DNA of 64,000 nt, from contig CANTFL010000123.1 of the NCBI GenBank assembly GCA_947650285.1, positions 1-64,000 of the forward strand, written 5' to 3'. The stretch comes from Hyaloperonospora brassicae (taxonomy: Eukaryota; Oomycota; Peronosporomycetes; Peronosporales; Peronosporaceae). Below are positions 4,739 to 49,147 of this stretch, piece after piece; the first letter of the stretch is position 1, and every line of letters starts with the position of its first letter. Under the pieces are notes generated by a model. That model saw only the letters and a program-made list of their open reading frames with translations, was not told the origin of the DNA and searched no databases. Position numbers and translations under genes: made by a program.

Positions 4739-4868
4739 TCACCCCCTATAACTGATAGTCACCGTGTGACTATCGAAAATATGGCGGCCACCCGTTGGGC
4801 ACCATTGGCACAGGGGCACTTGTTGGGTCCGTTCCGTTCACTTTCCTCTTTACCTCGCATAGTTAACA

Positions 4869-7948: not shown

Positions 7949-7960
7949 TCGCAGAAGATC

Positions 7961-10681: not shown

Positions 10682-10734
10682 GAGATTTGCAAATTCTCTT
10701 GAGGTTGCTGGATCAGTAGGGCGCTCCGCCCCTA

Positions 10735-11875
10735 CTAACCCCGACCATTTTTTGATGGTCCGTCTCGCTGTTGCGAAACCGCAACAGTGCTGGACCCACG
10801 CCTATTGCCCTTTCTGGCAAATGGTCGTCCATTTCGCTCAGTACTGTTTGGTACTGGGCGTGGAGCTCTACACTCGTATGCGTAGTGCCCTAACTTCTGA
10901 CAGCGATTGCACCTCTGAAATCGGTTGTTGTTTGAAGAGCGAGGTCTCTCGCTCTCAACATAGCAGATGTCCATTGGTTCTGGACCTCCGATCTCTTGTC
11001 GTCTCGGTGGACGATAAGAGTTTGAGCTAGCATGAGCCTGTCTCATGCTAAAGTCTTCCTGTTCCACAACTGATATCGCATCTTCCAGCGCATTCAGCTC
11101 AAGGCGGAACAGGTGGCTCCTGACGAGCCCTTCTGCGAGCCCTTGCATGAGCACCGTAATCAACGTGTGTTCATGAACTTGGTTAGCAGTTATACTACTC
11201 GCGAGGAGTCGCATATGTTGTGCGTAAGCGTGCACATCACGCTTACCCTGCTTGAGTTTCAGGAGATCTGAACGAGCCCTGAACTCAGCCCGTGGCGGCT
11301 CAAACGTTTGTCTGAGCCGGGACTTGAAGTCATCTAGCGACCTAAACACATCTGGGTCGCTACTCTCGAGTCCCAGGGACCAAGTTTTGGCATGTCCTGC
11401 CAAGTAAGTTTAGTTTCATTTGCTCATCTTCGACGCGACGAGCCCTTAAGGCTCTGTCGATTTCGAGAAACCACAGTAACAGGGAGTCCTCCGGGACTCC
11501 ACTGTACTTGGAGATGTCAACTTTCATGACTTCGGGACGACGCGCATGCGCCGTCCCGCCCACAGCAGCATGGAATTGCTGCTGTCTCAACAGCTCTGTC
11601 TGTTGAGCACCGAGTTCTCTCAACTGCTCGGCCTGTTGAGAGCCTTGCTGGTGAAGCAAGGCTACTTTCCCCCTTTCGACGACAAGTTCATTCTGAATGA
11701 ACTTGGCTATAGCGGCATGTTGTTGGTCTCTGTCTAGAGACTCCAACATGGCGCTAATGGCGAGTTCGCCTACGGTAGAACTCATTCAATCTACCTCACC
11801 CCATTCGATGTCTCTCAAATGTGTAAACCCTTCACGTGTGGCGTGAAAGGTCTCTTCATCATCCACCATGTTCAT
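10735..11875 (-). pseudogene. Gag of element A, two frames
   Basis: Gag is the nucleocapsid/capsid precursor. Frame 1 holds a coiled N-terminal region rich in Gln (LRELGAQQTELLRQQQFHAA), then KVDISKYSGVPEDSLLLWFL, typical of retrotransposon Gag. Frame 2 continues with the capsid core (SLDDFKSRLRQTFEPPRAEF) and a CCHC knuckle, C-x2-C-x4-H-x4-C in CNRCQKLGHYAYEC. The switch between frames is +1 and lies at the same bases in A, B, C and D. Here the Gln codon lost to TAG in B-D is still intact. A stop precedes the inner Met at 11785. Confidence 0.85.
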
Positions 11876-11925
11876 GGTTAATGATGTGGAGGTAGTTGCT
11901 CGAAGGACTGCAAAGTGCTACCAGG

Positions 11926-12336
11926 TGTAACAGGGCACACCCTTGCGTGAATTTAACGCAAGGGTATCGTGCGCCGACATGCGTACACGAGGCAACCGAG
12001 GAAGCAGTAGGTAAGACAGAGGCAACAATGTTTTAGGGAAAAGTATAACTGTTATATTAATATAATTAGGTCTTTAACCACTGTCTCTCTGTTGTACTTA
12101 ACTTAATCATACTAATCTAACTGAATGTATGAAGACGTCTACTCACCACTCATTGCGCGCGTCTTGCGGCGATTAATGGGTTGATATCGTCAAGATATCA
12201 ACCAATGAGCAGACTCTTTGGTCGACCCATCAATATCACCGCTTTGGTGATATTGTTCAAAGAAAAGTCAACATATATTCTTTATTGTCATTATCCCTCA
12301 AATGACAATTTCCATGTAACGGGCTGCCCCGATACA
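11926..12336 (-). repeat. LTR of element A (5' LTR) with adjacent PBS
   Basis: 411 bp, pairing with 4328-4738. Its outer edge is followed by the target duplication AAGAG (12337-12341). On the minus strand the internal side continues CCTGGTAGCACTTTG (11911-11925). TGGTAGC is complementary to a tRNA 3' end such as initiator-Met (GCTACCA), so this is the likely primer binding site. The last base pairs are mutated (GATACA for GTTACA). Confidence 0.93.
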
Positions 12337-13081
12337 AAGAGGGGTTCTGATGTATGCAGTTCGCACCCATGCCAATGTAAGCCTTCCCGCCTGGGCACGT
12401 AGAGGGTGTATGGTACACACAAACGCACGCAAAAACACACTGGTCGATTCGTTTTATCTGACGGTAATTTTGAATTTATGTCGGTTAGTACGATGCCGAT
12501 GGAGTCACCAAGATAGAATTCAATGACACCATGTGGCTTGAGATCCGTAATGCGACACGGCGTCGGTCTTTTGTAGCACCAAACGTCTGCAGCTGGTGCA
12601 CGTATAGGTTGTCAATCTACGTCATCAGCTGGGAGAAAGGTGACGAGCGGGTTGTAAACGAAAGGTTCGATTTTGTTTGTTACTAAGTTAGCATCTGATC
12701 TTGATACCATTTCAATTCTTTCCTTCCATGTGCAGTCATGCTATAACAGATCTTACTTTACGCGCTAACCACGCATGGCTAATACATCTGTCGGATAACG
12801 TCATTTGCCATGTTCATCATTCCCCAATCACACGAAAAAGAGTCGTCCCAATGGTTGTCGTCCAACACAAGGTAGTGACGTGCGATTGCTTGGCATGCGC
12901 GCACGAATGTTATTCGGACCCGTGCTAATCAAATTGCGAGTTGTACATACTGGTATCACACAATACCTTCACATGTCAACCGTACTGGTAGCCATCCGCT
13001 TGCGCAGACCCACCACACGAGAAAGCAGGACGCCACACAATTATACTGCTGACAGCATAATCCCCTACGGCGGTGAACGCA

Positions 13082-19754: not shown

Positions 19755-20324
19755 GGTCTTTAGGCCACTTAACGCTGTTGCTCTCTCCAGCACGCTGTTC
19801 AACCGACCCCGGTGGCCGAGTAAAAAGGCACTGGCCCCGGGACACGGAGGTACGTGGTTCTACGCGTGTTCGTGCAGCGTGGCAGCGTTGGGGGCATGCA
19901 GTACTTGGCATGGCCAGCATTGAATCCAGCGAGTCACGATTTGCCACAGGGCCCAATCTCCACTTACGGGTGGCGAAGCACCCGCCTAAGCGCCGACGCC
20001 CGCCACGAGAAGGGCCGATACGATACGATGCGAGCAATGGGTTGCGACGAGGCACTCATTGGTACGCTGAGTGCATAATGGCTTTGCGCTGCTTTTCCCT
20101 CGTGCAAACGGAGTTGAAGTTATGCTGATCAGCTCATCGAACTGACGCTGGGAATCGGACCTGTGTGTGTTTAGCCGCTCTCACTCGTTCGTGGTGAAAC
20201 GCTGAGGGGTTTGTCTCGTTACTCGCGGTGTGGCATGAGGAGGTACTGCTGTTCCCGCACGATGTGTCTATCGACCAAAAACTTTTGTACTACTGTGCGT
20301 TGTTGGACAAGTGAACGCTATAAA
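19755..20324. other. Intergenic stretch before element B
   Basis: Only short ORFs with no recognisable motif. No repeats shared with the rest of the window are seen. The last five bases (ATAAA) border the 5' LTR of element B and are not repeated after its 3' LTR. Confidence 0.5.
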
Positions 20325-20715
20325 TGTAACGGGGCAGCCTGTTACATGGAATTGTCACTTTAAGAAAAGTGACAATAAAGAATATGAAGTTGAATATTCT
20401 TTGTACAATATCACCAAAGTGGTGATATTGAAGGGTCGACCAAAGCGTCCGCTCATTGGTTGATATCTTGATGATATCAACCCACCAATCGCCGCAAGAC
20501 GCGCGTAATGAGTGGTGACGAGACGTCACCATACACTCAGTTATATTAGTATAGTTAAGCTAAGTCAAACAGAGAGACAGTAGTTAAAGACTTAATTATA
20601 TTAATATAACAGTTCTGCTTTTACCTTACCGACGCTCTCTCGCTTGCCTTGTGTACGTCTGTCGGGGCACTCGATACCCTTGCGTTAAGTTCACGCAAGG
20701 GTGTGCCCCGTTACA
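20325..20715 (+). repeat. 5' LTR of element B
   Basis: 391 bp, TGTAACGGGGCA at the start and TGCCCCGTTACA at the end, which are 12-bp inverted repeats of each other. It is nearly identical to 29984-30373 of element C, differing for example by CTCGATACC for CCGATACC near the end. Internal hairpins include GTCACTTT/AAAGTGAC and CAATATCACC/GGTGATATTG. Confidence 0.95.
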
Positions 20716-20733
20716 CCTGGTAGCACTTTGTAG
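20716..20733 (+). other. Primer binding site of element B
   Basis: Directly after the LTR come two spacer bases and TGGTAGCACTTTG. TGGTAGC complements a tRNA ending GCTACCA, as initiator-Met tRNAs do. The same site follows the 5' LTR of A and C; in D it is mutated (CCTATAGGCACTTTG). Confidence 0.6.
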
Positions 20734-20759
20734 TCCTTCCAAGGACCACAACATCCAAC

Positions 20760-21900
20760 ATGAACATGGTGGATGAAGAAGATACCTTTCACGCCACGCG
20801 TGAAGGTTTTACCCATTTGAGTGACATCGAATGGTGTGCGATAGAACGAATGAGTTCTACCGTAGGCGAACTCACCATTAGCGCCATGTTGGAGTCTCTA
20901 GACAGAGACCAACAGCATGCCGCTATAGCCAAGTTCATTCAGAATGAACTTGTCGCCGAAAGGGGAGAAAGTAGCCTTGCTTCACCAGCAAGGCTCTCAA
21001 CAGGCCGAGTAGTTGAGAGAACTCGGTGCTCAACAGACAGAGCTGTTGAGATAGCAGCAATTCCATGCTGCTGTGGGCGGGACGGCGCATGCGCGTCGTC
21101 CCGAAGTCATGAAAGTTGACATCTCCAAGTACAGTGGAGTCCCGGAGGACTCCCTGTTACTGTGGTTTTCGAAATCGACAGAGCCTTAAGGGCTCGTCGC
21201 GTCGAAGATGAGCAAATGAAACTAAACTTACTTGGCAGGACATGCCAAAGCTTGGTCCCTGGGGTTCGAGAGTAGCGACCCACATGTGCTTAGGTCGCTA
21301 GATGACTTCAAGTCCCGGCTCAGACAAACGTTTGAGCTGCCACGGGCTGAGTTCAGGGCTCGTTCAGAGCTCCTGAAACTCAAGCAGGGTAAGCGTGATG
21401 TGCACGCTTACGCACAACATATACGACTCCTTGCGAGTAGTATAAATGCTAACCCAGTACATGAACACACGTTGGTTACGGTGTTCATGCAAGGGCTCGC
21501 AGAAGGGCCCGTCAGGAGCCACCTGTTCCGCCTTGAGCTGAATACGCTGGAAGATGCGATATCAGCCGCGGAACAGGAAGACTTTAGCATGAGACAGGCT
21601 CATGCTAGCTCAAACTCTTATCGTCCACCGAGACGACAAGAGATCGGAGGTCCAGAACCAATGGACCTCTGCTATGTTGAGAGCGAGAGACCTCGCTCTT
21701 CAAACAACAACCGATTGCAGAGGTGCAATCGCTGTCAGAAGTTAGGGCACTACGCATACGAGTGTAGAGCTCCACGCCCAGTACCAAACAGTACTGAGCG
21801 AAATGGACGACCATTTGCCAGAAAGGGCAATAGGCGTGGGTCCAGCACTGTTGCGGTTCCGCAACAGCGAGACGGACCATCAAAAAATGGTCGGGGTTAG
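20760..21900 (+). pseudogene. Gag of element B, broken
   Basis: The N-terminus begins MNMVDEEDTFHATREGFTHL, followed by a Gln-rich helix region, the KVDISKYSGVPEDSLLLW block, the capsid core (SLDDFKSRLRQTFELPRAEF) and a CCHC knuckle near 21724-21765. Lesions are one extra G near 20965, a TAG in the helix region (shared with C), a TAG before QQFHAAV (shared with C and D) and a single-base loss near 21165. The +1 frame change before AGHAKAW is common to all copies. Confidence 0.88.
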
Positions 21901-21953
21901 TAGGGGCGGAGCACTCTACTGATCCATCAACCTCAAGAGAATTTGCAAATCTC

Positions 21954-22493
21954 TTGACGAAAGTTGCTCCAGATACACAATCATTGTGTGTCTCTGCACC
22001 TGGTGATGACTTTTCGCTCATCACCTTGAAGTTGGAAGCGACAAATGATTTGTCGCTGCGTGCCCTAGTAGATTGTGGGGCGTCGAACAACTTTGTTCGA
22101 CGCCGGTCACTAGAGGGTCGTAGGCTCAAGTTCGTTGAGCGCGACATTCCCCTCACAAGGATGACGGTGCGCCTTGCAACAGGCGCATCGATAACCGTTG
22201 AGAAACGTGTAGTAGGAATCCACTACACGTTAGAGGGCGAACAGTACGATGATGACTTCATCGTACTAGATCTGGATGACAAATTTGATGTCATCCTGGG
22301 ATTACCTTGGCTCAGAAAGTACGAGCCAAAGGTGATCTGGCAGCATCGATCCGTGAAGATGCCTGCCGCTTGTTCATCAGATGGCCATCTGATGAACATC
22401 TTGGAGCGTCCACAAGCGTGTGGATGTTCTGCGAGTGAGTGCGATGGCCTCACTTTCGGTACGGTCGTTAGCACGACTGCACAAGATAGTTGA
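21954..22493 (+). pseudogene. Retropepsin region of element B, open frame
   Basis: An uninterrupted 179-codon frame holds the aspartic protease, with catalytic loop ALVDCGASNNFVRR at residues about 36-49 and hydrophobic VILGLPWLRKYEP near 117-129. It would cut Gag-Pol. It ends at AGT TGA, where RT overlaps in the +1 frame starting upstream of 22490. The frame is intact here and in D (four C in the run at about 22148) but broken in A and C. Typed pseudogene because the element is dead. Confidence 0.85.
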
Positions 22494-25002
22494 TCACTAC
22501 ACTATGGAACAAGCTCCCGGCGACTGTACAGAAGTACAGGCTGCGCCGAAGGTCCACCACTCAAATAAGTCGAGTGGACCGGGACATAGATGCATGCCAA
22601 GCGGGCAGCATCTTAGAAGAAAGAAACCTGTTGCCCCCAAGGGGCAACACGAACATCCTAGGTCGACTGGAGAGTCGACCGTAGAGGACCGGTGCCTGAC
22701 TGTGGTTGCACAGCCACAGTCGGAAGACGTCGAGGGAATAAGTCCTCACGTACTTGAGGAAGGAATTCCTCAAGAGTTCCTTGCTGAGGGATCAGGCCCT
22801 CAGCAACCTGTGGAAGAAAGTTCCCAGGAAGAAACCGAGACGTTGAACGTCTTGGTTAATGACGGATCAAGCGTAGTCGCTTATACGCTTGATCTGATTG
22901 TGCCTCCGAAGTTAACTTCGGAGATAACTCAGTTGCCAACGCTAGAACCGAAAAGGTTCTTGCGTGATCTGCGTAGTGGCAAAGTCAAGCAGATCTGCAT
23001 ACTCGTCACGGAGGATGAGTATGTGGCCGATATTCGGTCGGCAACAGTATATGCTGAGAACGAACGGGTTCTCAGCAGCTCATCACTGGACGAAAGTGTC
23101 CTCGATGAGAAGACTCGGATTGAGCGATACGCGTCTCAATCCTGGGATTCACTTCAGGCAAATCCTTTGTGTAAGGATTTGATCGAATTCAGGGATGTGT
23201 TCCCTGAATCCGTACCTTGCGAGTTGCCTAAGGACAAAGACACTCGACACGAGATCGAGCTCAAACCGGGCTCGAAGTATTGTGTCATGAAGCAGTGGCC
23301 ACTGCCTCGTGAACAAGTACTAGCGATCGACAAGCTCTTTGCCGATCGCTTAGCAGCGGGCCATGTGAGGGAATCAACATCCCCTCACAGCTCTCCGACC
23401 TTCTGTGTGCGAAAGGCCACAGGAGGGTGGCGGATAGTGCACGCATTCAACAAGTTGAATGCTGCAACGGTACCGGCTCAGACGCCGATACCGAGGAAGG
23501 ACGTAATCATAGATGGTATGTCAAAGAGTACCATCTTTTCGTCCATGGATCTGATGGATGGATTCTATCAGATCCTTATGCGTGAACGGGACATCCCGTT
23601 CACGGCAGTGATTGCCCCCAGCGGGATGCTGTGGGAGTGGCTAGTGATGCCACAGGGGCTGAGTAATGCCCCTGCAACATTCAACAGATGTGTCACAAAT
23701 CTGTTGAGACCGGTGAGAGACTTCGCAACGAGTTACTTCGACGATGTGTTCGTCCATAGCCCGGCTATGGACGGAAAGACGGACGTTGAAGTTCACAGAA
23801 CTCACGTTCGTCAGGTTCGTCAACTTATTCGCAAGCATAATTTGTATGCCAAATTCAAGAAGTGTATATTCGCGGCTAGGCGAAATACCACCTCTTCGGT
23901 GCATCATGGGTAAACACGGCGTACGCCCTGATCCCGAGAAGATCAAGGCGATTACCGACTGGCCAGTGCCAGTAGATGTCAAGGGACTAAGGAAGTTCCT
24001 TGGTCTAGCGGCGTACTTGCACAAGTGCTCGCGCAACTACGCCGAGATGACGGTACATCTTTCTTGCTTGCTCAAAAAAATGTCAAGTGGTCATGGAACG
24101 CTGAGTGCCAGCATTCCTTTGAAGGTATCAAGCAAGGCTTGATGCAATCGCCCATCTTGGCGATTGCAGATCAGGACAGACCGTTTCATGTGGTCTGTGA
24201 CGCCAGCGATTTTGCAATCGGCTGTGCGTTAATGCAGTTCGAAGCAGATGGCGCAGAGCGCGTCATCTGTTATCAGTCGCGTCAGCTGCAAGCAGCTGAG
24301 CGCAATTACCCAGTGCATGACAAGGAACTACTCGCCATGAAGTATGCACTGGCTAAGTTCCGGGTCTATCTCTTGAAAGATAGACCGTTCATCGTCTATA
24401 CGGACCATGCGTCACTATGCACGGCCGTAAACAGTCCACACCTCTCGCAAAGGATGGCGAGGTGGCTGTCTTTCTTCGCGGAGTGCAACTTCTCCATGGA
24501 GTACAAACCAGGACGACTCAATGTCGTCGCTGATGCGTTACCACGTCGGCCGGACTTCGAACCAACGACCCGAGTCAACAGTGAGGATAAGCCCACTGTT
24601 GCGACACTTTCCATCAGTGTGCCGACGTCGCCGGTATTCGACGACGTGCGGAAGGCATACGCAGGAGACACGAATCGCCTCCGTGAGATGGGTCATTTGC
24701 AAACCCATCCCGGAAATCCTTTTCGGATTTGCCCGCCCCTGTACCGTTCCTCTTTGGATCGGTACAATACTCGCAATGGCTTGCTGTACTATACAGCTGT
24801 TGCCGACGACACGCGTCGTGTCGTCGTTCCCGATCATGACGCCTTGCGATTACGCATTATGTTCGAATGTCACGATGCGCCGTCTGGCGGGCATCGTGGC
24901 CGAGAAAAGACTTACCTCGCGGTCAGTCGTGACTTTTACTGGCCCCGCCAGTATCATTTGTCCGCAAGTACATACGTGCTTGCGAGGTTTGTCAACGGGT
25001 GA
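22420..25002 (+). pseudogene. RT, RNase H and integrase zinc-finger start of element B, broken
   Basis: The first 497 codons (22420-23913) hold the post-protease linker and RT fingers and palm, with MPQGLSNAPATFNRC and the catalytic box SYFDDVFVHS near residue 437. An extra G at about 23879 shifts the frame into the thumb. A missing A in the A-run near 24075 (shared with C) shifts it again into RNase H (CDASDFAIGCALMQ, TDHASL, GRLNVVADALPRRPDF; the usual Ser is Pro here). The zinc-finger start HRGREKTYLAVSRDFYW is read until a one-base loss near 24957, also shared with C. Confidence 0.9.
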
Positions 25003-26709
25003 AGCCTAATCCTTCATCCCGTGCGCCATTGCAGCCTCTGCCTGTTCCGAAAGAGTGCTGGCAGTCCGTCTCAATGGACTTTGTCTTCGAGTTTCCCGAA
25101 GACGCTCACAAGAATAATGGTTTTATTGTCTTTGTGGATCGTTTATGAAAATTGGTACATCTTGCTGCAGTCCCTGAGTCGATCAAGGCTCCAGGTTGTG
25201 CTCGTGGCTTCAGCGACACGGTCTTTAGACTCCACGCGTTACCCCGTGAACTCGTATCCGACAATGACCCTCGGTTCACGGCGGCGTTTTGACAATCCGT
25301 GTTCCTCACATTGAGAACACGATTGAAGATTTCTCCTTCTGACCATTCCGAAACAGATGGTCAGACAGAACGTGCAAATCGTTTCCTCGAAGAAATTATT
25401 CGTGGATACGTCCATTCCTGTTCACATTGGAGTGAGTTCTTACCGATGTTTGAATTCGCTATCAACAACTCCGTGCATGCGTACAGAACGCATACAACAT
25501 TCTACGTGAATAGCTTACGCCACCCACGTATTCCCGCCCTCATACAGAGTGACTCTGAGTTAAGGGGGGGGGTAATCGCTCGAGCAAAAACCGTTTTGGC
25601 TCTTGCTCATCACGTATCACCGCTCACGCCGATACGTTTGATGCCGATGTCGACAACGTCGACATCGAGGAAATCGAATTTAGCAGTAGCGATGACGCTG
25701 CTGCTACATCAGACAATGATGACGATGCTGGTATATTCAGCATCGTCAACGAATATGCCAGCGAGGGAGAAGACAACCTCGTTGCAGAAGAGAACGATCT
25801 CTTAGCAGTGCTCACGAAGCGCACTGAAAGACAAAACAAAGAGTCAGCAGAGAACTTCCTGCTGACTCGAGAGGCGGTAGTCCGTTTCGTTCAGGACTCC
25901 ATCGCAAATGCGGTGGACCGTCAGAAGCGGAACGCAGACAAAAATGGAAGAGCAAATGTTCTTTCATTTAAGGTTGACGACCTAGTACTACTGTCTACGG
26001 TAAAATTACCTGGACATGTAGTCACTAATGTCCGCAGTAGAAAACACATGCCGAAAAACATTGGTCCCTTTCGTGTGTTGCACCGCAAGGGCAATACATA
26101 CGCGATCGAGTTGCCTCGCAGGATGCGCAGGGATCCTCCGTTTTATGTTAGTCGTCTTCGCCCGTACCATCAGTACGAGGCCTCTTGCGAGAACAGAGAT
26201 AAACGGCGCGCTCAAGAATCCCCAACAGCTTCTTGTGATCACGGACCAAACACTGAAGTCGGTCGTTCGTCGAAAGGAGTTGATCCTTCATCGACGCGAC
26301 CTCGCGACGAGCCGCCTCTAGCTCGTCGCGCAAACGACGTTCTCTCGCGTTCACTATCAAGCTGAGCGAACGCTAACTTCGATCGGTCCTTATCCCGATT
26401 GGCACGAAGTCGTCGCACGTCCGACTGCAAGGCGTGCCAACGATTATTTTCGTGATCGACGTAATTATTCAGCTCAGTCAGGTAACGCTCGTAGTTACCC
26501 AACGTCTCGTGCAGGCCCGGCGGCTGAGCCGGACCTTATCTTTCCACCGCCACCGGAACCACTGGTGGATTTCCCACGGTGTTCAACGCTTTCTTGTGGA
26601 GCGTATCTTATACCACCGTGACGATTCAGGATCAAGGACGAGTTACCTCATCCGGTGGCGGGGGTATCCACCATCTTGGAACAGCTGGGAGCCCCGCTCA
26701 CGCTGTTAA
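25003..26709 (+). pseudogene. Integrase core, acidic insert and chromodomain of element B, divergent and broken
   Basis: From about 25080 the sequence departs from C. Recognisable are the DDE-core parts SDHSETDGQTERANRFLEE (QTE intact) and INNSVHAYRTHTTFYVNSL, an acidic stretch around 25660-25800, ESAENFLLTREAVVRFVQDS, GPFRVLHRKGNTYAIELPRR, and the terminal chromodomain with FLVERILYHRDDSGSRTSYL and WRGYPPSWNSWEP ending at 26709. There are several stops, including TGA inside the core near 25147 and one after LSRSLSS (26365). The tail is antisense to the opposite-strand ORF. Confidence 0.82.
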
Positions 26710-27801
26710 TGGACGTTGAAGGTCTCGTCCGCCTGTATGACGAGACTCATCCGATGAGTCTTGTGGCCCATCGGTAAACACGCGCCCTAGGCGCTTGTAG
26801 ACGGATTGCAAGTTTGCAATCGCGTCACGCATCTCACTCGAGATGTGTGCTCTTCTTTAGGGCGAACTTAAGGAATACACATCCCTATGTGCACGCTGCG
26901 AGTTGTCAACACAACTCGCACAAGGGTCTCCCCATGTGAGGCAAGGAATGTCTGCCTCACTAGAAAAACAGTGCAATCGGTACCTAGCACCGGTTGGAGT
27001 TCGCTTTTCGAACCTGAGGCGTGTCGCCATATGTTTCTTGAGCCACCCTTCTCGTCCAAAATTCGTGACATTTCGGACGAAGGCGTTCAACGCTGCCAAA
27101 AGCGATTTTTTGTCACGCTTTTGGTTGCCGTTGTACCATCGATGTCTAAGGAAGACATCGAGATAAAATTCTTCCTCAGCGCTAAAGTTCTTCGCGCTGA
27201 AACCTAATCCATGAAGTTCAGTCGCATCGAATAATGAAATTCGATGATGCTGGCTTGTCTCGTGAGACAGGCTATCGATGATAAGGTCGGGAAAGCGCCA
27301 CGGCTTGAGCTCACCACTATTCAATGTGAAACCTCTTTCGGTACCACGTCTTTTAAAATGACGACGACTCTCGCTATCGTCATCACGCTCTTGCGGGGAA
27401 GCGCGAATTGATACTGGTGAGGCATAGTATTCCTCATAATAGAGTTCAGCATCACTGCCGAACAGACTATGATGCATTTCACGAATCCGCTCGTTCGACA
27501 GTGCACTTGACGAACGATGAGGCACCGCTGGTGATCGGGATGCCTCTGGAACATTGCGCGAGTCAGGCACGTCTGACCCGCCGATATTTTTGACCTCATT
27601 GACAAGTTCATCATGCGCATGTGGTGCGCACATGCGTGCGTCTGCAGCACCTTCTGCTGCAGACGGAGAGCAAGCAGAAGACAAAGAAGAGTCTGCCGCA
27701 GAGACTGGCATAGCGGCAGGCTGTGTGGTCTTCGAATCACCTCGCATAGACATGTTAATTATGCGAGGCAAGGTCAGGGGTGAATGGGTCTGACCAAACA
27801 A
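26148..27801 (-). pseudogene. Opposite-strand ORF of element B, longest uninterrupted N-terminal part
   Basis: The first 314 codons (27801-26857) are open. They give an N-terminus containing NMSMRGDS, an Ala/Ser-rich stretch, MHHSLFGSDAE, LKPWRFPDLIIDSLSHETSQ, FYLDVFLRHRWYNGNQKRDK, RLRFEKRTPTGARYRLHC and DIPCLTWGDPCASC. A TAA replaces the Trp codon seen in C and D after YSLSSP. Further frames encode a coiled coil (HALQSDVRRLRANRDKDRSK; RDELEAARREVASMKDQLL) ending RPRTDG-TGEDD at 26148. Its residues differ from C and D, but the heptad pattern and positions such as LR.NR and ILER are kept. Function unknown. Confidence 0.75.
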
Positions 27802-27885
27802 AGGGTCCCTGTCCCACTGGTGTTCATCGGGTGGCCACCAAGTTTTTGATAGTCACACGGTGACTATTAGATAAGGGAGGGGTGA

Positions 27886-28324
27886 TGTAACGGGGTAGCC
27901 CGTTACATGAGATTGTCATTAAAACAATTTTGACAATAAAGAATATTACGTAGAATATTCTTTTAACAAGATCACAGACATGGTTGTTTTGTTGGGATGA
28001 CCGAAGGGTCTACTTGTGGTCGATATCGTGATGATATCAACCCACCAATCTCTGCTAGACGCGCGCAATGGGTGGTGAGTCGACGTCATCATACATATAA
28101 TTATATTAGTATAATTAAGGCAGGACAACAGAGATTCAAGGAGTTATAGGACTTAATTATATTAATACAGCTTTACTTTTACAAAGAGGCTAGTCTGAAT
28201 ACTTAGTCTCCTTTTCTTCCTCTGTGTTCCTTAAACACCTAGCAGGGCACTGTCGACCACTGTCGTCAGTGAAAGTATATTCCGTACTAATCAACCAGTA
28301 CGTAGTCATCAGTGCCCCGTTACA
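27886..28324 (+). repeat. 3' LTR of element B, different subfamily
   Basis: 439 bp, TGTAACGGGG to TGCCCCGTTACA, preceded by the purine run AAGGGAGGGGTGA. It differs throughout from the 5' LTR and has a distinct end (CACCTAGCAGGGCACTG, CAGTACG). It resembles the LTR of fragment E: GACGCGC-AATGGGTGGTGAG and CGATATCGTGATGATATCA. The bases after it (TCTTG) do not match those before the element. Confidence 0.9.
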
Positions 28325-29983: not shown

Positions 29984-30373
29984 TGTAACGGGGCAGCCCG
30001 TTACATGGAATTGTCACTTTAAGAAAAGTGACAATAAAGAATATGAAGTTGAATATTCTTTGTACAATATCACCAAAGTGGTGATATTGAAGGGTCGACC
30101 AAAGAGTCTGTTCATTGGTTGATATCCTGATGATATCAACCCACAAATCGCCGCAAGACGCGCGCAATGAGTGGTGACGAGACGTCACCATACACTCAGT
30201 TATATTAGTATAGTTAAGCTAAGTCAAACAGAGAGACAGTAGTTAAAGACTTAATTATATTAATATAACAGTTCTGCTTTTACCTTACCGACGCTCTCTC
30301 GCTTGCCTTGTGTACGTCTGTCGGGGCACCGATACCCTTGCGTTAAGTTCACGCAAGGGTGTGCCCCGTTACA
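29984..30373 (+). repeat. 5' LTR of element C with PBS
   Basis: 390 bp with the 12-bp inverted termini TGTAACGGGGCA/TGCCCCGTTACA and a further CCCGTTACA close to the left end, which makes a 22-nt terminal hairpin (9-bp arms, 4-nt loop). The primer site CCTGGTAGCACTTTG follows at 30374-30388. Confidence 0.95.
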
Positions 30374-30417
30374 CCTGGTAGCACTTTGTAGTCCTTCCAA
30401 GGACCACAACATCCAAC

Positions 30418-31558
30418 ATGAACATGGTGGATGAAGAAGATACCTTTCACGCCACGCGTGAAGGTTTTACCCATTTGAGTGACATCGAATGGTGTGCGAT
30501 AGAACGAATGAGTTCTACCGTAGGCGAACTCACCATTAGCGCCATGTTGGAGTCTCTAGACAGAGACCAACAGCATGCCGCTATAGCCAAGTTCATTCAG
30601 AATGAACTTGTCGCCGAAAGGGAGAAAGTAGCCTTGCTTCACCAGCAAGGCTCTCAACAGGCCGAGTAGTTGAGAGAACTCGGTGCTCAACAGACAGAGC
30701 TGTTGAGATAGCAGCAATTCCATGCTGCTGTGGGCGGGACGGCGCATGCGCGTCGTCCCGAAGTCATGAAAGTTGACATCTCCAAGTACAGTGGAGTCCC
30801 GGAGGACTCCCTGTTACTGTGGTTTCTCGAAATCGACAGAGCCTTAAGGGCTCGTCGCGTCGAAGATGAGCAAATGAAACTAAACTTACTTGGCAGGACA
30901 TGCCAAAGCTTGGTCCCTGGGGCTCGAGAGTAGCGACCCACATGTGCTTAGGTCGCTAGATGACTTCAAGTCCCGGCTCAGACAAACGTTTGAGCCGCCA
31001 CGGGCTGAGTTCAGGGCTCGTTCAGAGCTCCTGAAACTCAAGCAGGGTAAGCGTGATGTGCACGCTTACGCACAACATATACGACTCCTTGCGAGTAGTA
31101 TAAATGCTAACCCAGTACATGAACACACGTTGGTTACGGTGTTCATGCAAGGGCTCGCAGAAGGGCCCGTCAGGAGCCACCTGTTCCGCCTTGAGCTGAA
31201 TACGCTGGAAGATGCGATATCAGCCGCGGAACAGGAAGACTTTAGCATGAGACAGGCTCATGCTAGCTCAAACTCTTATCGTCCACCGAGACGACAAGAG
31301 ATCGGAGGTCCAGAACCAATGGACCTCTGCTATGTTGAGAGCGAGAGACCTCGCTCTTCAAACAACAACCGATTGCAGAGGTGCAATCGCTGTCAGAAGT
31401 TAGGGCACTACGCATACGAGTGTAGAGCTCCACGCCCAGTACCAAACAGTACTGAGCGAAATGGACGACCATTTGCCAGAAAGGGCAATGGGCGTGGGTC
31501 CAGCACTGTTGCGGTTTCGCAACAGCGAGACGGACCATCAAAAAATGGTCGGGGTTAG
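30418..31558 (+). pseudogene. Gag of element C, broken
   Basis: Starts MNMVDEEDTFHATREGFTHL. The first frame stops at a TAG at 30667-30669 after HQQGSQQAE, and there is another TAG before QQFHAAV. It reopens from about 30730 (HARRPEVMKVDISKYSG) and then, in the +1 frame from about 30890, gives the capsid core and the CCHC knuckle CNRCQKLGHYAYEC. Differences from B are few: B's extra G and its lost base are absent here, so those two B lesions are later. Confidence 0.88.
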
Positions 31559-31611
31559 TAGGGGCGGAGCACTCTACTGATCCATCAATCTCAAGAGAAT
31601 TTGCAAATCTC

Positions 31612-32152
31612 TTGACGAAAGTTGCTCCAGATACACAATCATTGTGTGTCTCTGCACCTGGTGATGACTTTTCGCTCATCACCTTGAAGTTGGAAGCGAC
31701 AAATGATTTGTCGCTGCGTGCCCTAGTAGACTGTGGGGCGTCGAACAAATTTGTTCGACGCCGGTCACTAGAGGGTCGTAGGCTCAAGTTCGTTGAGCGC
31801 GACATTCCCCCTCACAAGGATGACGGTGCGCCTTGAAACAGGCGCATCGATAACCGTTGAGAAACGTGTAGTAGGAATCCACTACACGTTAGAGGGCGAA
31901 CAGTACGATGATGACTTCATCGTACTAGATCTGGATGACAAATTTGATGTCATCCTGGGATTACCTTGGCTCAGAAAGTACGAGCCAAGGGTGATCTGGC
32001 AGCATCGATCCGTGAAGATGCCTGCCGCTTGTTCATCAGATGGCCATCTGATGAACATCTTGGAGCGTCCACAAGCGTGTGGATGTTCTGCGAGTGAGTG
32101 CGATGGCCTCACTTTCGGTACGGTCGTTAGCACGACTGCACAAGATAGTTGA
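31612..32152 (+). pseudogene. Retropepsin of element C, frameshifted
   Basis: The active-site loop reads ALVDCGASNKFVRR (Lys for the second Asn). A run of five C at about 31806-31810 shifts the frame after FVERDIP; the second half continues as MTVRLETGASITVEK and VILGLPWLRKYEP to the AGT TGA end. The single-C difference from B and D is a homopolymer change, also present in A. Confidence 0.85.
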
Positions 32153-34660
32153 TCACTACACTGTGGAGCAAGATCCCGGCGGCTGTACAGAAGTACATGC
32201 TGCGCCGAAGGTCCACCACTCAAATAAGTCGAGTGGACCGGGACATAGATGCATGCCTAGCGGGCAGCATCTTAGAAGAAAGAAACCTGTTGCCCCAAAG
32301 GGGCAACACGAACATCCTAGGTCGACTGGAGAGTCGACCGTAGAGGACCGGTGCCTGACTGTGGTTGCACAGCCACAGTCGGAAGACGTCGAGGGAATAA
32401 GTCCCCACGTACTTGAGGAAGGAATTCCTCAAGAGTTCCTTGCTGAGGGATCAGGCCCTCAGCAACCTGTGGAAGAAAGTTCCCAGGAAGAAACCGAGAC
32501 GTTGAACGTCTTGGTTAATGACGGATCAAGCGTAGTCGCTGATAAGCTTGATCTGATTGTGCCTCCGAAGTTAACTTCGGAGATAACTCAGTTGCCAACG
32601 CTAGAACCGAAAAGGTTCTTGCGTGATCTGCGTAGTGGCAAAGCCAAGCAGATCTGCATACTCGTCACAGAGGTTGAGTATGTGACCGACATTCGGTCGG
32701 CAACAGTATTTGCTGAGAACGAACGGGTTCTCAGCAGCTCATCACTGGACGAAAGTGTCCTCGATGAGAAGACTCGGATTGAGCGATACGCGTCTCAATC
32801 CTGGGATTCACTTCAGGCAAATCCTTTGTGTAAGGATTTGATCGAATTCAGGGATGTGTTCCCTGAATCCGTACTTTGCCAGTTGCCTAAGGACAAAGAC
32901 ACTCGACACGAGATCGAGCTCAAACCGGGCTCGAAGTATTGTGTCATGAAGCAGTGGCCACTGCCTCGTGAACAAGTACTAGCGATCGACAAGCTCTTTG
33001 CCGATCGCTTAGCAGCGGGCCATGTGAGGGAATCAACATCCCCTCACAGCTCTCTGACCTTCTGTGTGCGAAAGGCCACAGGAGGGTGGCGGATAGTGCA
33101 CGCATTCAACAAGTTGAATGCTGCAACGGTACCGGCTCAGACGCCGATACCGAGGAAGGACGTAATCATAGATGGTATGTCAAAGAGTACCATCTTTTCG
33201 TCCATGGATCTGATGGATGGATTCTATCAGATCCTCATGCGTGAACGGGACATCCCGTTCACGGCAGTGAGTATCCCCAGCGGGATGCTGTGGGAGTGGC
33301 TAGTGATGCCACAGGGGCTGAGTAATGCCCCTGCAACATTCAACAGATGTGTCACAAATCTGTTGAGACCGGTGAGAGACTTCGCAACGAGTTACTTCGA
33401 CGATGTGTTCGTCCATAGCCCGGCTATGGACGGAAAGACGGACGTTGAAGTTCACAGAACTCACGTTCGTCAGGTTCGTCAACTTATTCGCAAGCATAAT
33501 TTGTATGCCAAATTCAAGAAGTGTATATTCGCGGCTAGCGAAATACCACCTCTTCGGTGCATCATGGGTAAACACGGCGTACGCCCTGATCCCGAGAAGA
33601 TCAAGGCGATTACTGACTGTCCTTTGCCAGTCGATGTCAAGGGACTAAGGAAGTTCCTTGGTCTAGCGGCGTACTTGCACAAGTACTCGCGCAACTACGC
33701 CGAGATGACGGTACATCTTTCTTGCTTGCTCAAAAAAATGTCAAGTGGTCATGGAACGCTGAGTGCCAGCATTCCTTTGAAGGTATCAAGCAAGGCTTGA
33801 TGCAATCGCCCATCTTGGCGATTGCAGATCAGGACAGACCGTTTCATGTGGTCTGTGACGCCAGCGATTTTGCAATCGGCTGTGCGTTAATGCAGTATGA
33901 CACAGACGGCGCAGAGCGCGTCGTCTGCTATCAATCGCGTCAGCTGCAACCAGCTGAACGCAATTATCCAGTGCATGACAAGGAACTACTTGCCATGAAG
34001 TATGCACTGGCTAAGTTCCGGGTCTATCTCTTGAAAGATAGACCGTTCATCGTCTATACGGACCATGCGTCACTATGCACGGCCGTAAACAGTCCACACC
34101 TCTCGCAAAGGATGGCGAGGTGGCTGTCTTTCTTCGCGGAGTGCAACTTCTCCATGGAGTACAAACCAGGACGACTCAATGTCGTCGCTGATGAGTTATC
34201 ACGTCGGCCGGACTTCGAACCAACGACCCGAGTCAACAGTGAGGATAAGCCCACTGTTGCGACACTTTCCATCAGTGTGCCGACGTCGCCGGTATTCGAC
34301 GACGTGCGGAAGGCATACGCAGGAGACACGAATCGCCTCCGTGAGATGGGTCATTTGCAAACCCATCCCGGAAATCCTTTTCGGATTTGCCCGCCCCTGT
34401 ACCGTTCCTCTTTGGATCGGTACAATACTCGCAATGGCCTGCTGTACTATACAGCTGTTGCCGACGACACGCGTCGTGTCGTCGTTCCCGATCATGACGC
34501 CTTGCGATTACGCATTATGTTCGAATGTCACGATGCGCCGTCTGGCGGGCATCGTGGCCGAGAAAAGACTTACCTCGCGGTCAGTCGTGACTTTTACTGG
34601 CCCCGCCAGTATCATTTGTCCGCAAGTACATACGTGCTTGCGAGGTTTGTCAACGGGTGA
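32079..34660 (+). pseudogene. RT, RNase H and integrase start of element C
   Basis: The best-preserved RT in the window: one 573-codon frame (32079-33800) covers linker, fingers (PQTPIPRKDV-type linker, WRIVHAFNKLNAATVPAQ), palm (MDLMDGFYQILMRERDIPFT; box SYFDDVFVHS near residue 437), thumb and connection (GLRKFLGLAAYLHKYSRNYA). It leaves frame at the seven-A run near 33735, where D reads through. RNase H continues in 33722-34660 with CDASDFAIGCALMQ, HDKELLAMKYALAKF and GRLNVVADELSRRPDF. The zinc finger is cut by a one-base loss near 34615 shared with B. Confidence 0.92.
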
Positions 34661-36374
34661 AGCCTAGTCCTTCATCCCGTGCGCCATTGCAGCCTCTGCC
34701 TGTTCCGAAAGAGTGCTGGCAGTCCGTCTCAATGGACTTCGTCTTCGGTTTTCCCGAAGACGCTCACAAGAATAATGGTATTCTTGTGTTTGTTACCGAT
34801 TCAGCAAGATGGTCCATCTTGATGCAGTCCCTGAGTCGATCAAGGCTCCAGGTTGTGCTCGTGTCTTTCTAGACACGGTCTTTAGACTCCACGGGTTACC
34901 CCGTGAGCTCGTATCCGACCGTGACTTGGTTCACGGCGGCATTTTGGCAAACCGTGTCCCGTACTCTCGGAACACGATTGAAGATGTCAACTTCTGATCA
35001 TCCCGAAACAGATGGTCAGACGGAACGTGCGAGCCGTGTCTTCGAAGTGATCCTTCGAGGATATATCCACTCGTTTCCGAGTTGGAGCGAATTCCTACCC
35101 ATGGTAGAATTCGCCATCAATAATTCGGTGCATGCTTCAACACAGCACACGCCGTTTTACGTGAATGGCCTACGCCATCCACGAGTGCCCACCCTTATAG
35201 AGTGTAACTCTTGGATAAGGGGGGAGGGACTCGCTCGAGCAAAAACCGTTTTGGATCTTGCTCATCACGTGTCGACGCTAACGTCGTCACGTATGATGCC
35301 GATGTCGATCAAGTCGACATCGATGAAGAAGATCGCCTCAATAATAGCGATGACGCTATTATTGACTCGGATGATGATGACGATGCTGGTATATTCAGCA
35401 TCGTCAACGATTAGGCCAGCGAGGAAGAAGACAACCTCGCTGAAGAAGAGAGCAATCTCTTAGCAGTGCGCACGAAGCGCACTGAAAGACAAAACAAAGA
35501 GTCAGCAGAGAACTTCCTGCTGACTCGAGAGGCGGTAGTCCGTTTCGTTCAGGACTCCATCGCAAATGCGGTGGACCGGCAGAAACGGAACGCAGACAAG
35601 AATGGAAGAGCAAATGCTCTTTCATTTAAGGTTAATGACCTAGTACTACTGTCTACGGTAAACTTACCTGGACATGCAGTCACTTGTGTCGGCAGTAGTT
35701 TACTACTGCCGAAATACATTGGGCCATTTCGAGTGTTGCATCGCAAGGGCAATGCATACACGATCAAATTGCCACGTAGGATGCGTGCGCATCCTACTTT
35801 TTAGGTGGAGAGGCTTAGGTCGTACTGTCAGTATGAGCCTTCTTCTTCCGATGAAGATAGCCCCCACGTTCAAGAACATCCATCAAGTTCTTGCGTTCGC
35901 GCTCCAGACGATCCGTCTGGTTGCGCAGATATGATACCTCGGAACTCAACCGAGATATCTCCCCGCGAGCTGTCGCCAGCTCGCCGAATAGGAAGCGGAC
36001 ATCCCGCTCGACCTGATGCTGCGCTGTGGCATAATCGGCGCGATCCCTCGCCCGATCAGCCTCGTGATCGTTGCGGTTCTTCCGCAAAAAAACAGACAGG
36101 TCGTAACGCCGGTCGCGCTCGTGCTTCAAGTCATCGCGCAATTCATCGATTGCGCGATCCATCTCGTAAGGGTCGAGATGGTGAAACGAATTATCTGGAG
36201 GAGTTCTTTCCTCCTCCACCACATCCTTTGGTGGACGCTCACGGTGATCAACGCTTTCTAGTGGAGCGTATCTTGAATCACCGTGACGATTCAGGATCAA
36301 GGACGAGCTACCTCGTCCAGTGGCGGGGGTATTCACCATCTTGGAACAGCTGGGAGCCCCGCTCACGCTGTTAA
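34657..36374 (+). pseudogene. Integrase core, acidic insert and chromodomain of element C, broken
   Basis: Pieces in order: MDFVFGFPEDAHKNNGILVF, LDTVFRLHGLPRELVSDRD (second catalytic Asp) and DHPETDGQTERASRVFEV with the catalytic Glu. Then an acidic insert of Asp/Glu runs (about 35310-35410), ESAENFLLTREAVVRFVQDS, a C-terminal barrel-like segment, and a chromodomain ending WNSWEPRSRC-stop at 36374. A two-base loss after SDRD (about 34920) is shared with D. Other lesions are a TAG after SIVND (35412-35414) and a stop at 35802-35804. D extends the chromodomain 18 residues further without a stop. Confidence 0.87.
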
Positions 36375-37517
36375 TGGATGTTGAAGGTCTCGTCCGCCAG
36401 TATGACGAGACCCATCCGATGAGTCTTGTGGCCCATCGGTAAACACGCGCCCTAGGCGCTTGTAGACGGATTGCAAGTTTGCAATCGCGTCACGCATCTC
36501 ACTCGAGATGTGTGCCCTTCCCCAGGGCGAATTTAGGGAATACACATCCCTATGTGCACGCTGCGAGTTGTCAACACAACTCGCACAAGGGTCTCCCCAT
36601 GTGAGGCAAGGAATGTCTGCCTCACTCGAAAAACAATGCAACCGGTACCTAGCACCGGTTGGAGTTCGCTTTTCGAACCTGAGGCGTGTCGCCATATGTT
36701 TCTTGAGCCACCCTTCTCGTCCAAAATTCTTTACAGGTTGGACGAACGCGTTCCACGCAGCCAAATACAAGGCCTTGTCACGCTTTTGGTTGCCGTTGTA
36801 CCATCGATGTCTAAGGAAGACATCGAGATAAAATTCTTCCTCAGCGCTAAAGTTCTTCGCGCTGGAACTCAAGCCGTGGAGCTCAGTCGCATCGAATAAG
36901 GATATTCGATGAAGTTGGCTTGTCTCGTGAGACAAGTCATTGATTAGTTGTTCAGGCAAACGCCACGGCTCCAGCTCATCACGCTTCACCGTGGTACCCT
37001 TGACGTTACCACGGTCGTCAGTATGACGATGGCTTGCACCATCGTCAAGTCGCTCGTGCGAAGGAGCACGAGTTGATCACGGTGATGAGCAATCATAATC
37101 ATCATCAGACTCATCATCACTGCCGAACAGACAGTGACGCATGTCACGAGTCCGTACGTCCGGCAGTGTCGTGGATGAATGAGGCACCGCAGGTGAACGC
37201 GACGCCTCCAAAGGCTTTTCAGATTCAGATACGTCTGATCCGCCAGAATAGATGACCTCTATGTCAGGGTCATCATGCGCACGCGGTGTGATACCGCGTG
37301 CACCTGCAGCACATATTGCTGCAGGCGAAGAAGGAGCAGCAGACGACGAATCGTCTGTCGCGGAGGCTGGCACAGCAGCGGGCTGTGCGTGTCTTGAGTC
37401 ACCCCGCATCGACATGTTAACTATGCGAGGTAAAGAGGAAAGTGAATGGAACGGACCCAACAAGTGCCCCTGTGCCAATGGTGCCCAACGGGTGGCCGCC
37501 ATATTTTCGATAGTCAC
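35815..37517 (-). pseudogene. Opposite-strand ORF of element C, nearly complete
   Basis: From 37517 the frame runs MTIENMAATRWAPLAQGHLL, NMSMRGDS, an Ala/Ser/Pro-rich acidic segment and RDMRHCLFGSDDESDDD to a single TGA at 37077-37079. It continues in the same frame as 36989-36363 (FYLDVFLRHRWYNGNQKRDK, RLRFEKRTPTGARYRLHC, RAHISSEMRDAIANLQSVYK). After a frameshift it becomes 36366-35815, a charged coiled coil (IDELRDDLKHERDRRYDLSV; SRLSSEVSYLRNQTDRLERE) ending KKKAHTDSTT. Only two breaks in about 567 codons. The C-terminal 560 bp are antisense to the chromodomain and pol tail. No known family recognised. Confidence 0.8.
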
Positions 37518-37546
37518 ACGGTGACTATCAGTTAAAGGGGGGGTGA

Positions 37547-49121: not shown

Positions 49122-49147
49122 TCACCCATCTTACTGATAAAAATCGT

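What the first reader, a model, noticed from the sequence alone, without database searches (positions are those of the whole stretch)
20760..26100. Gypsy coding sequence packed with short perfect hairpins
In element B between 22000 and 24600 I count about 26 perfect inverted repeats with arms of 8 bp or more and loops of 12 nt or less. Examples: 22079-22104 (12-bp arms, 2-nt loop), 22243-22267 (10, 5), 22372-22397 (13-bp arms, perfect palindrome), 22781-22806 (10, 6), 22904-22923 (10, 0), 23053-23076 (9, 6), 23581-23604 (11, 2), 23752-23772 (10, 1), 24143-24168 (10, 6), 24363-24386 (9, 6). A rough chance estimate (2600 positions x 13 loop sizes x 4^-8) is about 0.5. The pattern covers gag, pol, the opposite-strand region and the LTRs in all copies. 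The effector genes show no stem of 8 bp or more by eye. Spread through protein-coding sequence, this suggests selection for RNA or cDNA structure, or a copying process that turns near-palindromes into perfect ones.
Basis: partly seen in the sequence, partly recalled or inferred. Interest (0 to 1): 0.88.

Follow-up and report, generated by a model that had tools for sequence, protein, structure and literature searches.

The report
Retrotransposons saturated with gauged perfect hairpins
Several families of Gypsy jumping genes in one downy-mildew-like genome are packed with short perfect hairpins, each family with its own hairpin size, which points to a copying process or a selection that the neighbouring DNA and the Copia elements examined do not share.

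Summary
Of 333 perfect stems in the window (arm >=8, loop <=12), 324 lie in copies or remnants of one Ty3/Gypsy family and 9 in about 29 kb of other DNA. The four long copies carry 70-85 each against about 1.3 in shuffles; codon shuffles do not explain it. Four copies elsewhere with 99.7-100% alike LTRs have 14 per kb; one of them, L032, folds 49.7% better than shuffles on both strands.

New here: the other three Gypsy families sampled have the trait too, each with its own size: 8-10 bp arms (this family, W), 8-9 bp (P, P2), exactly 5 bp with 3-6 nt loops (N). Thirteen Copia loci show no comparable excess. Hairpins are mostly perfect or absent, G-U is not clearly preferred to A-C, positions turn over between P and P2, and paired changes appear at low divergence.

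Best reading: arms copied from each other during the element's own reverse transcription (0.45). Selection for perfect hairpins is the close rival (0.37). Mechanism is inferred, not shown.

The parts
20324..28180 (+). Element B, Ty3/Gypsy LTR retrotransposon of family W; the stretch after 26539 comes from a more diverged subfamily
   Evidence: Self-comparison: 20325-26186 is 95.6% to element C; 26539-28180 only 81-82% to A, C and D. 70 perfect stems, shuffle mean 1.27.
20324..20716 (+). 5' LTR of B
   Evidence: Matches LTRs of A, C, D. In the young W copy L032 the LTR carries 6 non-overlapping hairpins in 393 bp.
27885..28182 (+). 3' LTR of B, diverged from its 5' LTR (77.6%)
21226..21900 (+). 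gag frame (Retrotrans_gag; zinc knuckle just under its cut-off); 8 perfect stems versus 0.21 in codon shuffles
   Evidence: Pfam; shuffle.
21834..22493 (+). aspartyl protease frame; 9 stems versus 0.51
   Evidence: Pfam; shuffle.
22396..23913 (+). reverse transcriptase frame; 18 stems versus 0.49
   Evidence: RVT_1 E 1.3e-23; shuffle.
23932..25002 (+). RNase H and integrase zinc-binding frame; 6 stems versus 0.40
25559..26365 (+). C-terminal integrase frame with Tf2-1-like SH3; 4 stems versus 0.19
26857..27852 (-). antisense ORF between pol and 3' LTR (331 aa in B, 539 aa in L032); 8 stems versus 0.33
   Evidence: No Pfam match; homologues of the D copy's frame in other downy mildews.
22371..22398 (.). 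longest perfect palindrome of 20760-26100, 14 bp arms, no loop
22079..22104 (.). example hairpin, 12 bp arms, 2 nt loop
   Evidence: kept in A, C, D, one or more mismatches in L031-L035.
22781..22806 (.). example hairpin, 10 bp arms; one pair is G-C in some copies and A-T in others
   Evidence: Of 25 scored copies: G-C 14, A-T 7, A-C 2, G-T 1, G-A 1.
4324..12346 (-). Element A, same family; 81 stems
29984..37937 (+). Element C, same family; 85 stems
50641..58662 (+). Element D, same family; 77 stems
42762..43033 (+). solo LTR fragment of the family
48820..49942 (-). diverged 3' relic of the family (about 75%); 6 stems versus 0.20

Best explanation
The hairpins are mainly a product of how these Gypsy elements are copied. 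During reverse transcription the single-stranded cDNA folds back on itself and one arm is copied from the other (snap-back or template-switch copying), so that imperfect hairpins become perfect and a mutation in one arm is either reversed or written into the other. The family's own enzyme and nucleoprotein set the hairpin size (about 9 bp in W, 8 bp in P, 5 bp in N). Protein selection then removes events that damage gag or pol, so survivors are fitted into the reading frames. Shown: the excess, its limit to Gypsy elements among the sequences examined, the family-specific size, strand symmetry of folding, the mostly perfect-or-absent spectrum, turnover between P and P2, and two-sided changes. 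Inferred: that the agent is the element's reverse transcription, that the step is arm-to-arm copying, and that the enzyme sets the size.
For: Sharp edges at the LTRs: in five full-length copies (L031-L035) 546 stems lie between the LTR ends and 1 in 9.6 kb of flank. No comparable excess in 13 Copia loci, apart from extra stems at one end of L049-L052 and a mild excess of 5-7 bp arms in L064. Strand symmetry: MFED 49.7% sense and 49.7% antisense in W copy L032, 34.2 and 33.6 in B, 15.4 and 15.6 in P; 147 G-U-tolerant versus 148 A-C-tolerant stems in L032. Spectrum of inner mismatches, observed (expected): W 0:71 (0.3), 1:41 (4.1), 2:19 (17.3); N copy L059 0:97 (13.5), 1:109 (118.2). Turnover: P and P2 (71% DNA identity) share 3 of 23 hairpin centres while both stay at 3-5 per kb. 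Compensation between subfamilies W1 and W2: 5 two-sided Watson-Crick pairs and 1 other two-sided against 13 one-sided; at most 0.52 expected by chance. 18 of 24 compensated column pairs change an amino acid on at least one side, 9 on both (one side of 2 pairs could not be read and was counted as silent). Breaking changes: 13 one-sided observed, stationary selection predicts 2.9-5.8 (P 1e-5 to 0.006). Site divergence in arms, summed over both directions, is about that outside stems (W L032-L028 0.125 versus 0.129-0.131; L032-L033 0.055 versus 0.058-0.063; N 0.114 versus 0.120-0.124). Published precedents propose the same step for DNA replication (PMC8794818, abstract and discussion read) and for coding palindromes in worm mitochondria (PMC6649704, abstract, passages and discussion read).
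Against: No event of one arm being overwritten at once was caught: changes between subfamilies split between arms about as a coin toss would (judged by eye, no test run). W and P have an excess of one-mismatch stems (41 versus 4.1; 16 versus 5.4), which fast correction should remove. The upper limit of arm length and the exact 5 bp of N are not predicted without an added assumption. Arm length and GC content trade off in W (rho -0.27 and -0.30) and P2 (-0.69), though not clearly in P (-0.14, p 0.55), as a stability threshold would give. Stem codons are only somewhat less conserved than others: lower in 12 of 15 comparisons, below p 0.05 in two (W against P 45.7% and 56.8%; against P0095 45.3% and 60.0%), equal against P0001 (86.8% and 86.8%); blind copying should damage them more. 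W loops are purine-rich in the sense strand, a strand asymmetry. Among very young W copies one-sided changes prevail: L031, L032 and L034 differ from each other at 17-32 stem pairs on one side and none on both; L035 differs from each of them by 2 two-sided pairs, one change counted in each LTR. The W1-W2 test rests on small counts and on five W2 copies, two of them nearly identical.
Confidence: 0.45

Rival explanations
1. Selection for many perfect Watson-Crick hairpins of a family-specific length, needed by the element: for example a size-specific recognition by its own Gag or nucleocapsid that tells self RNA or cDNA from that of sister families, or protection of the nucleic acid.
For: Family-specific size with chance-like extension beyond it, clearest in N: L059 arm 5, 6, 7 = 61, 12, 2 with loops 3-6, no excess with loops 7-12. 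Arm length against GC trade-off in W and P2. N prefers C-G next to the loop (L059: 27 of 56 five-bp arms have C there, 5 have G; L058: 28 and 7 of 58), W does not. Codon position 3 diverges half as much in stems as outside (0.042 and 0.082 per site). Loops diverge more than arms. Stem codons stay fairly conserved.
Against: Stationary enrichment in W implies that breaking changes fix at about 0.14 of the neutral rate; the observed count is higher. The lower divergence in stems is about what ascertainment alone gives (my arithmetic, not a call). Stems with one inner G-U are not in excess in N. No loop motif was seen by eye. Positions are not conserved between P and P2.
Confidence: 0.37
2. Selection on ordinary sense-RNA secondary structure, as in the genome-scale ordered structure of RNA viruses.
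For: Very large folding excess; positions not conserved, as reported for coronaviruses (PMC7642675, passages read); A-rich, purine-rich loops in W; a lean to G-U with one mismatch in N (61 and 84 against 52 and 49 for A-C, counts that include stem ends) and over all families (66 against 46, p 0.07).
Against: Strand symmetry of folding excess and G-U about equal to A-C in W (68 and 68 over five related copies; 147 and 148); P and P2 lean to A-C (9:2 and 8:2, stem ends included).
Confidence: 0.08
3. Sense and antisense transcripts of the element (it carries an antisense ORF) are each kept folded so that they do not anneal into long double-stranded RNA and trigger silencing.
For: Explains strand symmetry. 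W, P and N all carry a long antisense ORF (539, 465 and 437-472 aa); density in L032 is highest in the part of the antisense ORF that does not overlap pol (18 per kb).
Against: Hairpins cover the whole element, also far from the antisense ORF. 5-bp hairpins of N would hardly stop annealing (inference). No transcript data here.
Confidence: 0.06
4. Chance, composition, codon usage or an assembly artefact.
For: None beyond the first suspicion.
Against: Shuffles that keep dinucleotides or codons; separate copies on many contigs; pattern search finds 1,143 places of one hairpin with up to 3 mismatches and 0 of its reversed control.
Confidence: 0.01

Closest known systems
Coding palindromes in mitochondrial genes of Nematomorpha (PMC6649704; abstract, passages and discussion read)
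   Same: Perfect inverted repeats inside conserved coding sequence, dynamic gains and losses; the authors consider repeat conversion or template switching.
   Different: There: mitochondrial DNA, repeats up to 284 bp, no excess of imperfect ones. Here: nuclear LTR retrotransposons, arms of 5 or 8-10 bp with a family-specific size, high density, LTRs included, and one-mismatch stems in excess in W and P.
Template-switch mutations that create and maintain RNA hairpins (PMC8794818; abstract and discussion read)
   Same: Would make perfect stems and two-sided changes in one event, without regard to G-U.
   Different: Described for DNA replication of RNA genes; here only Gypsy elements of the sequences examined show it, so the agent would be their reverse transcription. 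No single templated event was caught here.
Genome-scale ordered RNA structure of RNA viruses (PMC7642675; passages read)
   Same: Hundreds of consecutive stem-loops through coding sequence, positions poorly conserved.
   Different: Reported genome means: HCV 7-9%, SARS-CoV-2 15%, highest 23.4% (a deltacoronavirus), with local peaks above 50%. W copy L032 has a mean of 49.7% (eight shuffles per 350-nt fragment, so similar but not identical in method) and the same in antisense.
Ty3/Gypsy elements with antisense ORFs between pol and 3' LTR, such as plant Retand (PMC11963269; passages read)
   Same: Antisense ORF in the same place.
   Different: The passages read mention no hairpin saturation; the ORF here has no recognised Pfam domain in the two window frames scanned.
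Tree-of-life survey of perfect inverted repeats, 118,019 genomes (PMC13155455; passages read)
   Same: Same kind of object: arms >=10, spacer <=8.
   Different: Reported eukaryote average 1.91 IR bp per kb and maximum 180 in a partitivirus; W copies L031 and L032 have 114 arm bp per kb (136-139 with spacers), B 70, P 23, P2 and N 0.

Membership tests
Ty3/Gypsy LTR retrotransposon | gag, protease, RT, RNase H, integrase in that order between LTRs | tested here: met
   Pfam matches in order; LTRs. The integrase core (rve) was not matched in the frames scanned; relatives listed carry PF00665.
Ty3/Gypsy LTR retrotransposon | recent activity | tested here: met
   LTRs 99.7-100% alike in L031, L032, L034, L035; 94.6% in L033; pol ORF of 1666 aa in L032 and L035.
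Genome-scale ordered RNA structure | folding energy below order-shuffled controls along coding sequence | tested here: met
   W L032 49.7%, B 34.2%, P 15.4%, N 14.9%, P2 5.9%, Copia L061 0.6%, three host stretches -0.4 to 4.5%.
Genome-scale ordered RNA structure | structure belongs to the RNA strand (G-U tolerated, sense above antisense) | tested here: not met
   Sense not clearly above antisense in W, B, P, P2 or N; G-U about equal to A-C in W; 66 to 46 over all families, p 0.07. That sense should exceed antisense is my expectation, not taken from a call.
Nematomorph-type coding palindromes | perfect inverted repeats in conserved coding sequence | tested here: met
Nematomorph-type coding palindromes | no excess of imperfect repeats | tested here: inconclusive
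   Met in N (109 versus 118.2; 118 versus 122.9) and about met in P2 (6 versus 3.7); not met in W (41 versus 4.1) or P (16 versus 5.4).
Template-switch mutation | two-sided changes above independent mutation | tested here: met
   5 versus at most 0.52 expected; 19 double-change column pairs versus 5-12 in six shifted controls.
Template-switch mutation | several changes at once in one arm copied from the other | tested here: not met
   Splits between arms look random; losses and gains could not be told apart.
Dispersed packaging-signal hairpins (recalled from memory; no call) | shared loop or stem motif bound by the coat protein | tested here: inconclusive
   No motif seen by eye in listed loops; binding not testable here.

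The most novel reading that the evidence does not exclude
Each Gypsy family of this oomycete writes its own hairpin gauge into every part of its genome, a structural bar code made of perfect stems of fixed length. It is laid down by a hairpin-templating reverse transcriptase and possibly used by the element to tell its own RNA or cDNA from that of sister families: a sequence-independent self-mark spread through coding sequence.
Probability: 0.25. Interest if true: 0.95.

Novelty: new variant of a known kind. Interest (0 to 1): 0.84.

Why it matters
If copying writes the hairpins, these elements record a reverse transcriptase that perfects palindromes often enough to reshape its own genes, which makes the old question of how perfect stems and paired changes arise directly testable in a retrotransposition assay. 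If selection writes them, it is a pervasive and family-specific structural code in coding sequence; by MFED its mean in L032 is about twice the highest genome mean quoted for vertebrate RNA viruses (PMC7642675, passages read). Either way, covariation in such elements cannot be read as proof of functional RNA structure. The trait may also give a simple way to sort elements into families by hairpin size.

Tried and rejected
Chance, dinucleotide content and codon use: rejected by shuffles. Genome-wide property: not supported, window flank and Copia loci lack a comparable excess. Exceptions told: window 1-4000 has 5 stems against 0.77; the flank 12400-20300 has extra 6 and 7 bp arms with loops 3-6 (23 against 5.2; 7 against 1.5); Copia L064 has 25 arms of 5-7 bp against 12.7; Copia L049-L052 have 3-6 stems in one end kilobase. 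Family N looked like a clean negative until its folding excess led me to test shorter arms; it has its own 5 bp gauge, so my notebook entry on N is superseded. Antisense ORF as the cause: W, P and N all have one, so it does not set the gauge. Purifying selection on stems from the lower W1-W2 divergence: withdrawn, because choosing stems that are intact in at least one lineage predicts about the same drop (my arithmetic). P against P2 is uninformative: arms are as diverged as the rest (0.295 and 0.276 against 0.284-0.288). Codon-phase test: uneven against a flat expectation (p 0.04), not against codon shuffles (p 0.18). Templated insertion at two indels (11 nt in gag, 8 nt in pol): read as deletions of one arm in A-D, because L031, L032 and L035 are open there. 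Old P copies L068-L070 mainly show decay. The alignment mixed strands and was replaced; no result is taken. The search for related loci in viral contigs found nothing. Literature: (full-text searches of the held library, search listings seen) listed no paper whose title or abstract start reports hairpin-saturated LTR retrotransposons. Passages of the Ty3 RNA structure paper (PMC11381356) were read and not used. G-U versus A-C counts include stem ends; one search is the cleaner test.

Full report
OBSERVATION. A plain search for perfect stems (arm >=8, loop <=12) finds 333 in the window; 324 lie inside four long copies, a solo LTR and a relic of one LTR retrotransposon family, 9 elsewhere. Element B (20324-28180) has 70, A 81, C 85, D 77, against 1.2-1.4 in dinucleotide shuffles. 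The other DNA is near chance in total (9 against a summed shuffle mean of 5.3), with 5 against 0.77 in 1-4000. Within 13 reading frames tested codon-preserving shuffles give 0.2-0.6 stems where 4-18 are seen. Loops peak at 4-5 nt and the excess is gone by about 15 nt.

WHAT THE ELEMENTS ARE. Ty3/Gypsy elements with gag, protease, RT, RNase H and integrase parts, LTRs of about 390 bp in L031-L035 and a long antisense ORF between pol and the 3' LTR without a recognised domain. The listed protein relatives that bear a species name are oomycete, best Peronospora effusa 74%. One hairpin of the family, with up to 3 mismatches, occurs 1,143 times.

YOUNG COPIES ARE RICHER. L031, L032, L034 and L035 have LTRs 99.7-100% alike and carry 111-115 stems in 8 kb (14 per kb); L033 (LTRs 94.6%) carries 93. 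In these five copies 546 stems lie between the LTR ends and 1 in 9.6 kb of flank. L032 and L035 have a pol ORF of 1666 aa; in L032 it holds 66 stems, codon shuffle mean 1.7, maximum 5 of 40. All 30 loci are stem-rich (two of them are window copies). Arm length has its own peak at 8-10 bp, apart from the chance tail, and falls off above 11. B folds 34% better than shuffles, L032 50%.

EACH FAMILY HAS A GAUGE. I compared four Gypsy families of the same genome. W (this one): 8-10 bp arms. P (L036 and others; 1795 aa ORF): 5.3 stems per kb, GC 0.70 in the arms. P2 (L060, L065-L067): 3.2-3.7 per kb. N (L058, L059): no excess at 8 bp, but arms of exactly 5 bp with loops of 3-6 nt: 61 against 8.9 expected in L059 and 61 against 7.6 in L058; 6 and 7 bp arms fit chance extension, and loops of 7-12 nt show no excess; codon shuffle 74 against 15. 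W, P and N are about equally distant (51-57% amino acid identity). Of 13 Copia loci none shows such a gauge; L064 has a mild excess of 5-7 bp arms (25 against 12.7), and L049-L052 have 3-6 stems in one end kilobase. The repeat-bearing host flank 12400-20300 has extra 6 bp arms (23 against 5.2).

STRAND SYMMETRY. Over 44 fragments of 350 nt L032 folds 49.7% better than shuffles in sense and 49.7% in antisense; B 34.2 and 33.6; P 15.4 and 15.6; P2 5.9 and 8.5; N 14.9 and 16.9. A 1 kb piece of B gives z -13.7 and -22.8 from 20 shuffles each. In L032, stems allowed to hold G-U number 147, stems allowed A-C 148. With one inner mismatch, G-U and A-C number 66 and 46 over all families (p 0.07); in N both are about chance (40 against 45.7, 30 against 35.9). 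Against symmetry: W loops are purine-rich (A 0.33, C 0.18), and counts that include stem ends lean to G-U in N and to A-C in P and P2.

SPECTRUM. Inner mismatches, observed (expected). W: perfect 71 (0.3), one 41 (4.1), two 19 (17.3). P: 38 (0.3), 16 (5.4), 27 (25.1). P2: 12 (0.2), 6 (3.7), 17 (15.7). N: 97 (13.5) and 109 (118.2) in L059, 88 (12.3) and 118 (122.9) in L058. So N and P2 are close to binary; W and P keep a minority of one-mismatch stems.

EVOLUTION. Among nine W copies (86-99% alike) 112 of 133 hairpin centres are shared by at least five. Between P and P2 (71%) 3 of 23 centres are shared while both stay dense. Between subfamilies W1 and W2, of the stem pairs of L032, 389 are unchanged, 13 changed on one side, 5 on both sides to another Watson-Crick pair, 1 on both sides otherwise, 23 unsettled; at most 0.52 two-sided pairs are expected by chance. 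In 30 loci 16 of 555 column pairs hold two Watson-Crick types in at least 3 copies each, and 19 show double change against 5-12 in six shifted controls. Of 24 compensated column pairs (each type in at least 2 copies), 9 change amino acids on both sides, 9 on one, 6 on neither; two unreadable sides were counted as silent, and a few pairs lie next to the loop. If the excess were kept by stationary selection, breaking changes in W should fix at 0.14 of the neutral rate, that is 2.9-5.8 changes; 13 are seen. Arm sites of W and N change, summed over both branches, about as fast as sites outside. Loops change faster than arms, and codon position 3 changes less in stems than outside, but stems were chosen for being intact, which explains much of that. 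Among the youngest copies one-sided differences prevail.

MECHANISM. Strand symmetry, the mostly perfect-or-absent spectrum, limitation to Gypsy elements among the sequences examined, LTR-to-LTR coverage and two-sided change at low divergence fit arm-to-arm copying on single-stranded cDNA by the element's own machinery. The family gauge, the length-GC trade-off in W and P2, the closing-pair preference of N and fairly conserved stem codons fit selection for perfect hairpins. I lean to copying, 0.45 against 0.37. No templated event was caught in the act, and changes do not cluster in one arm.

KNOWN THINGS. Coding palindromes of Nematomorpha mitochondria (PMC6649704) and template-switch maintenance of RNA hairpins (PMC8794818) are the nearest in kind; ordered RNA structure of viruses (PMC7642675) is the nearest in appearance but the strand test goes against it. 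My literature searches (listings) showed no hairpin-saturated LTR retrotransposon.

LIMITS. The number of letters that could be fetched was capped; families were judged from 2 loci (N), 4 (P2), 12 largely identical ones plus three old copies (P) and 35, some overlapping (W), with most detailed tests on one copy each. Related species could be seen only as proteins. The trees and polarity needed to separate gains from losses are missing.

Noticed in passing
3743-4327 and 12427-14245 versus 49956-50542 and 58688-60661: Two paralogous segments (78-85% alike) each carry a W element (A and D, 92% alike) at nearly the same place but in opposite orientation, starting about 100 bp apart relative to the shared flank.
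   Followed up: no
14440-16790: Tandem array with a period of about 121 bp in the GC-rich flank; matches between copies 88-98%.
   Followed up: no
26539-28180: B looks recombinant: its 3' part and 3' LTR belong to a subfamily about 18% away from A, C and D.
   Followed up: partly
20324-28180, 29984-37937, 50641-58662, 4324-12346: All four window copies share an 11 nt loss in gag and an 8 nt loss in pol relative to L031-L035, each removing most of one hairpin arm.
   Followed up: partly
26857-27852 (-) and L058:1-648, L036/L071: Long antisense ORFs sit at the 3' end of pol in families W (539 aa), P (465 aa) and N (437 aa at L058, 472 aa at L059); the W protein has homologues in several downy mildews; P and W proteins are not alike by BLASTP.
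   Followed up: partly
L049, L050, L051, L052: Copia loci with 3-6 perfect stems confined to one end kilobase; may be an adjacent element.
   Followed up: no
1-4000: AT-rich window start with 5 perfect stems against 0.77 in shuffles, one of them with 12 bp arms at 3085-3112.
   Followed up: no
43050-48800: AT-rich tract (35-39% GC) between a solo LTR and a relic.
   Followed up: no
PMC13155455 (literature, passages): The genome with the densest perfect inverted repeats in that survey is a partitivirus, a double-stranded RNA virus (virus type recalled); another case where both strands would matter.
   Followed up: no
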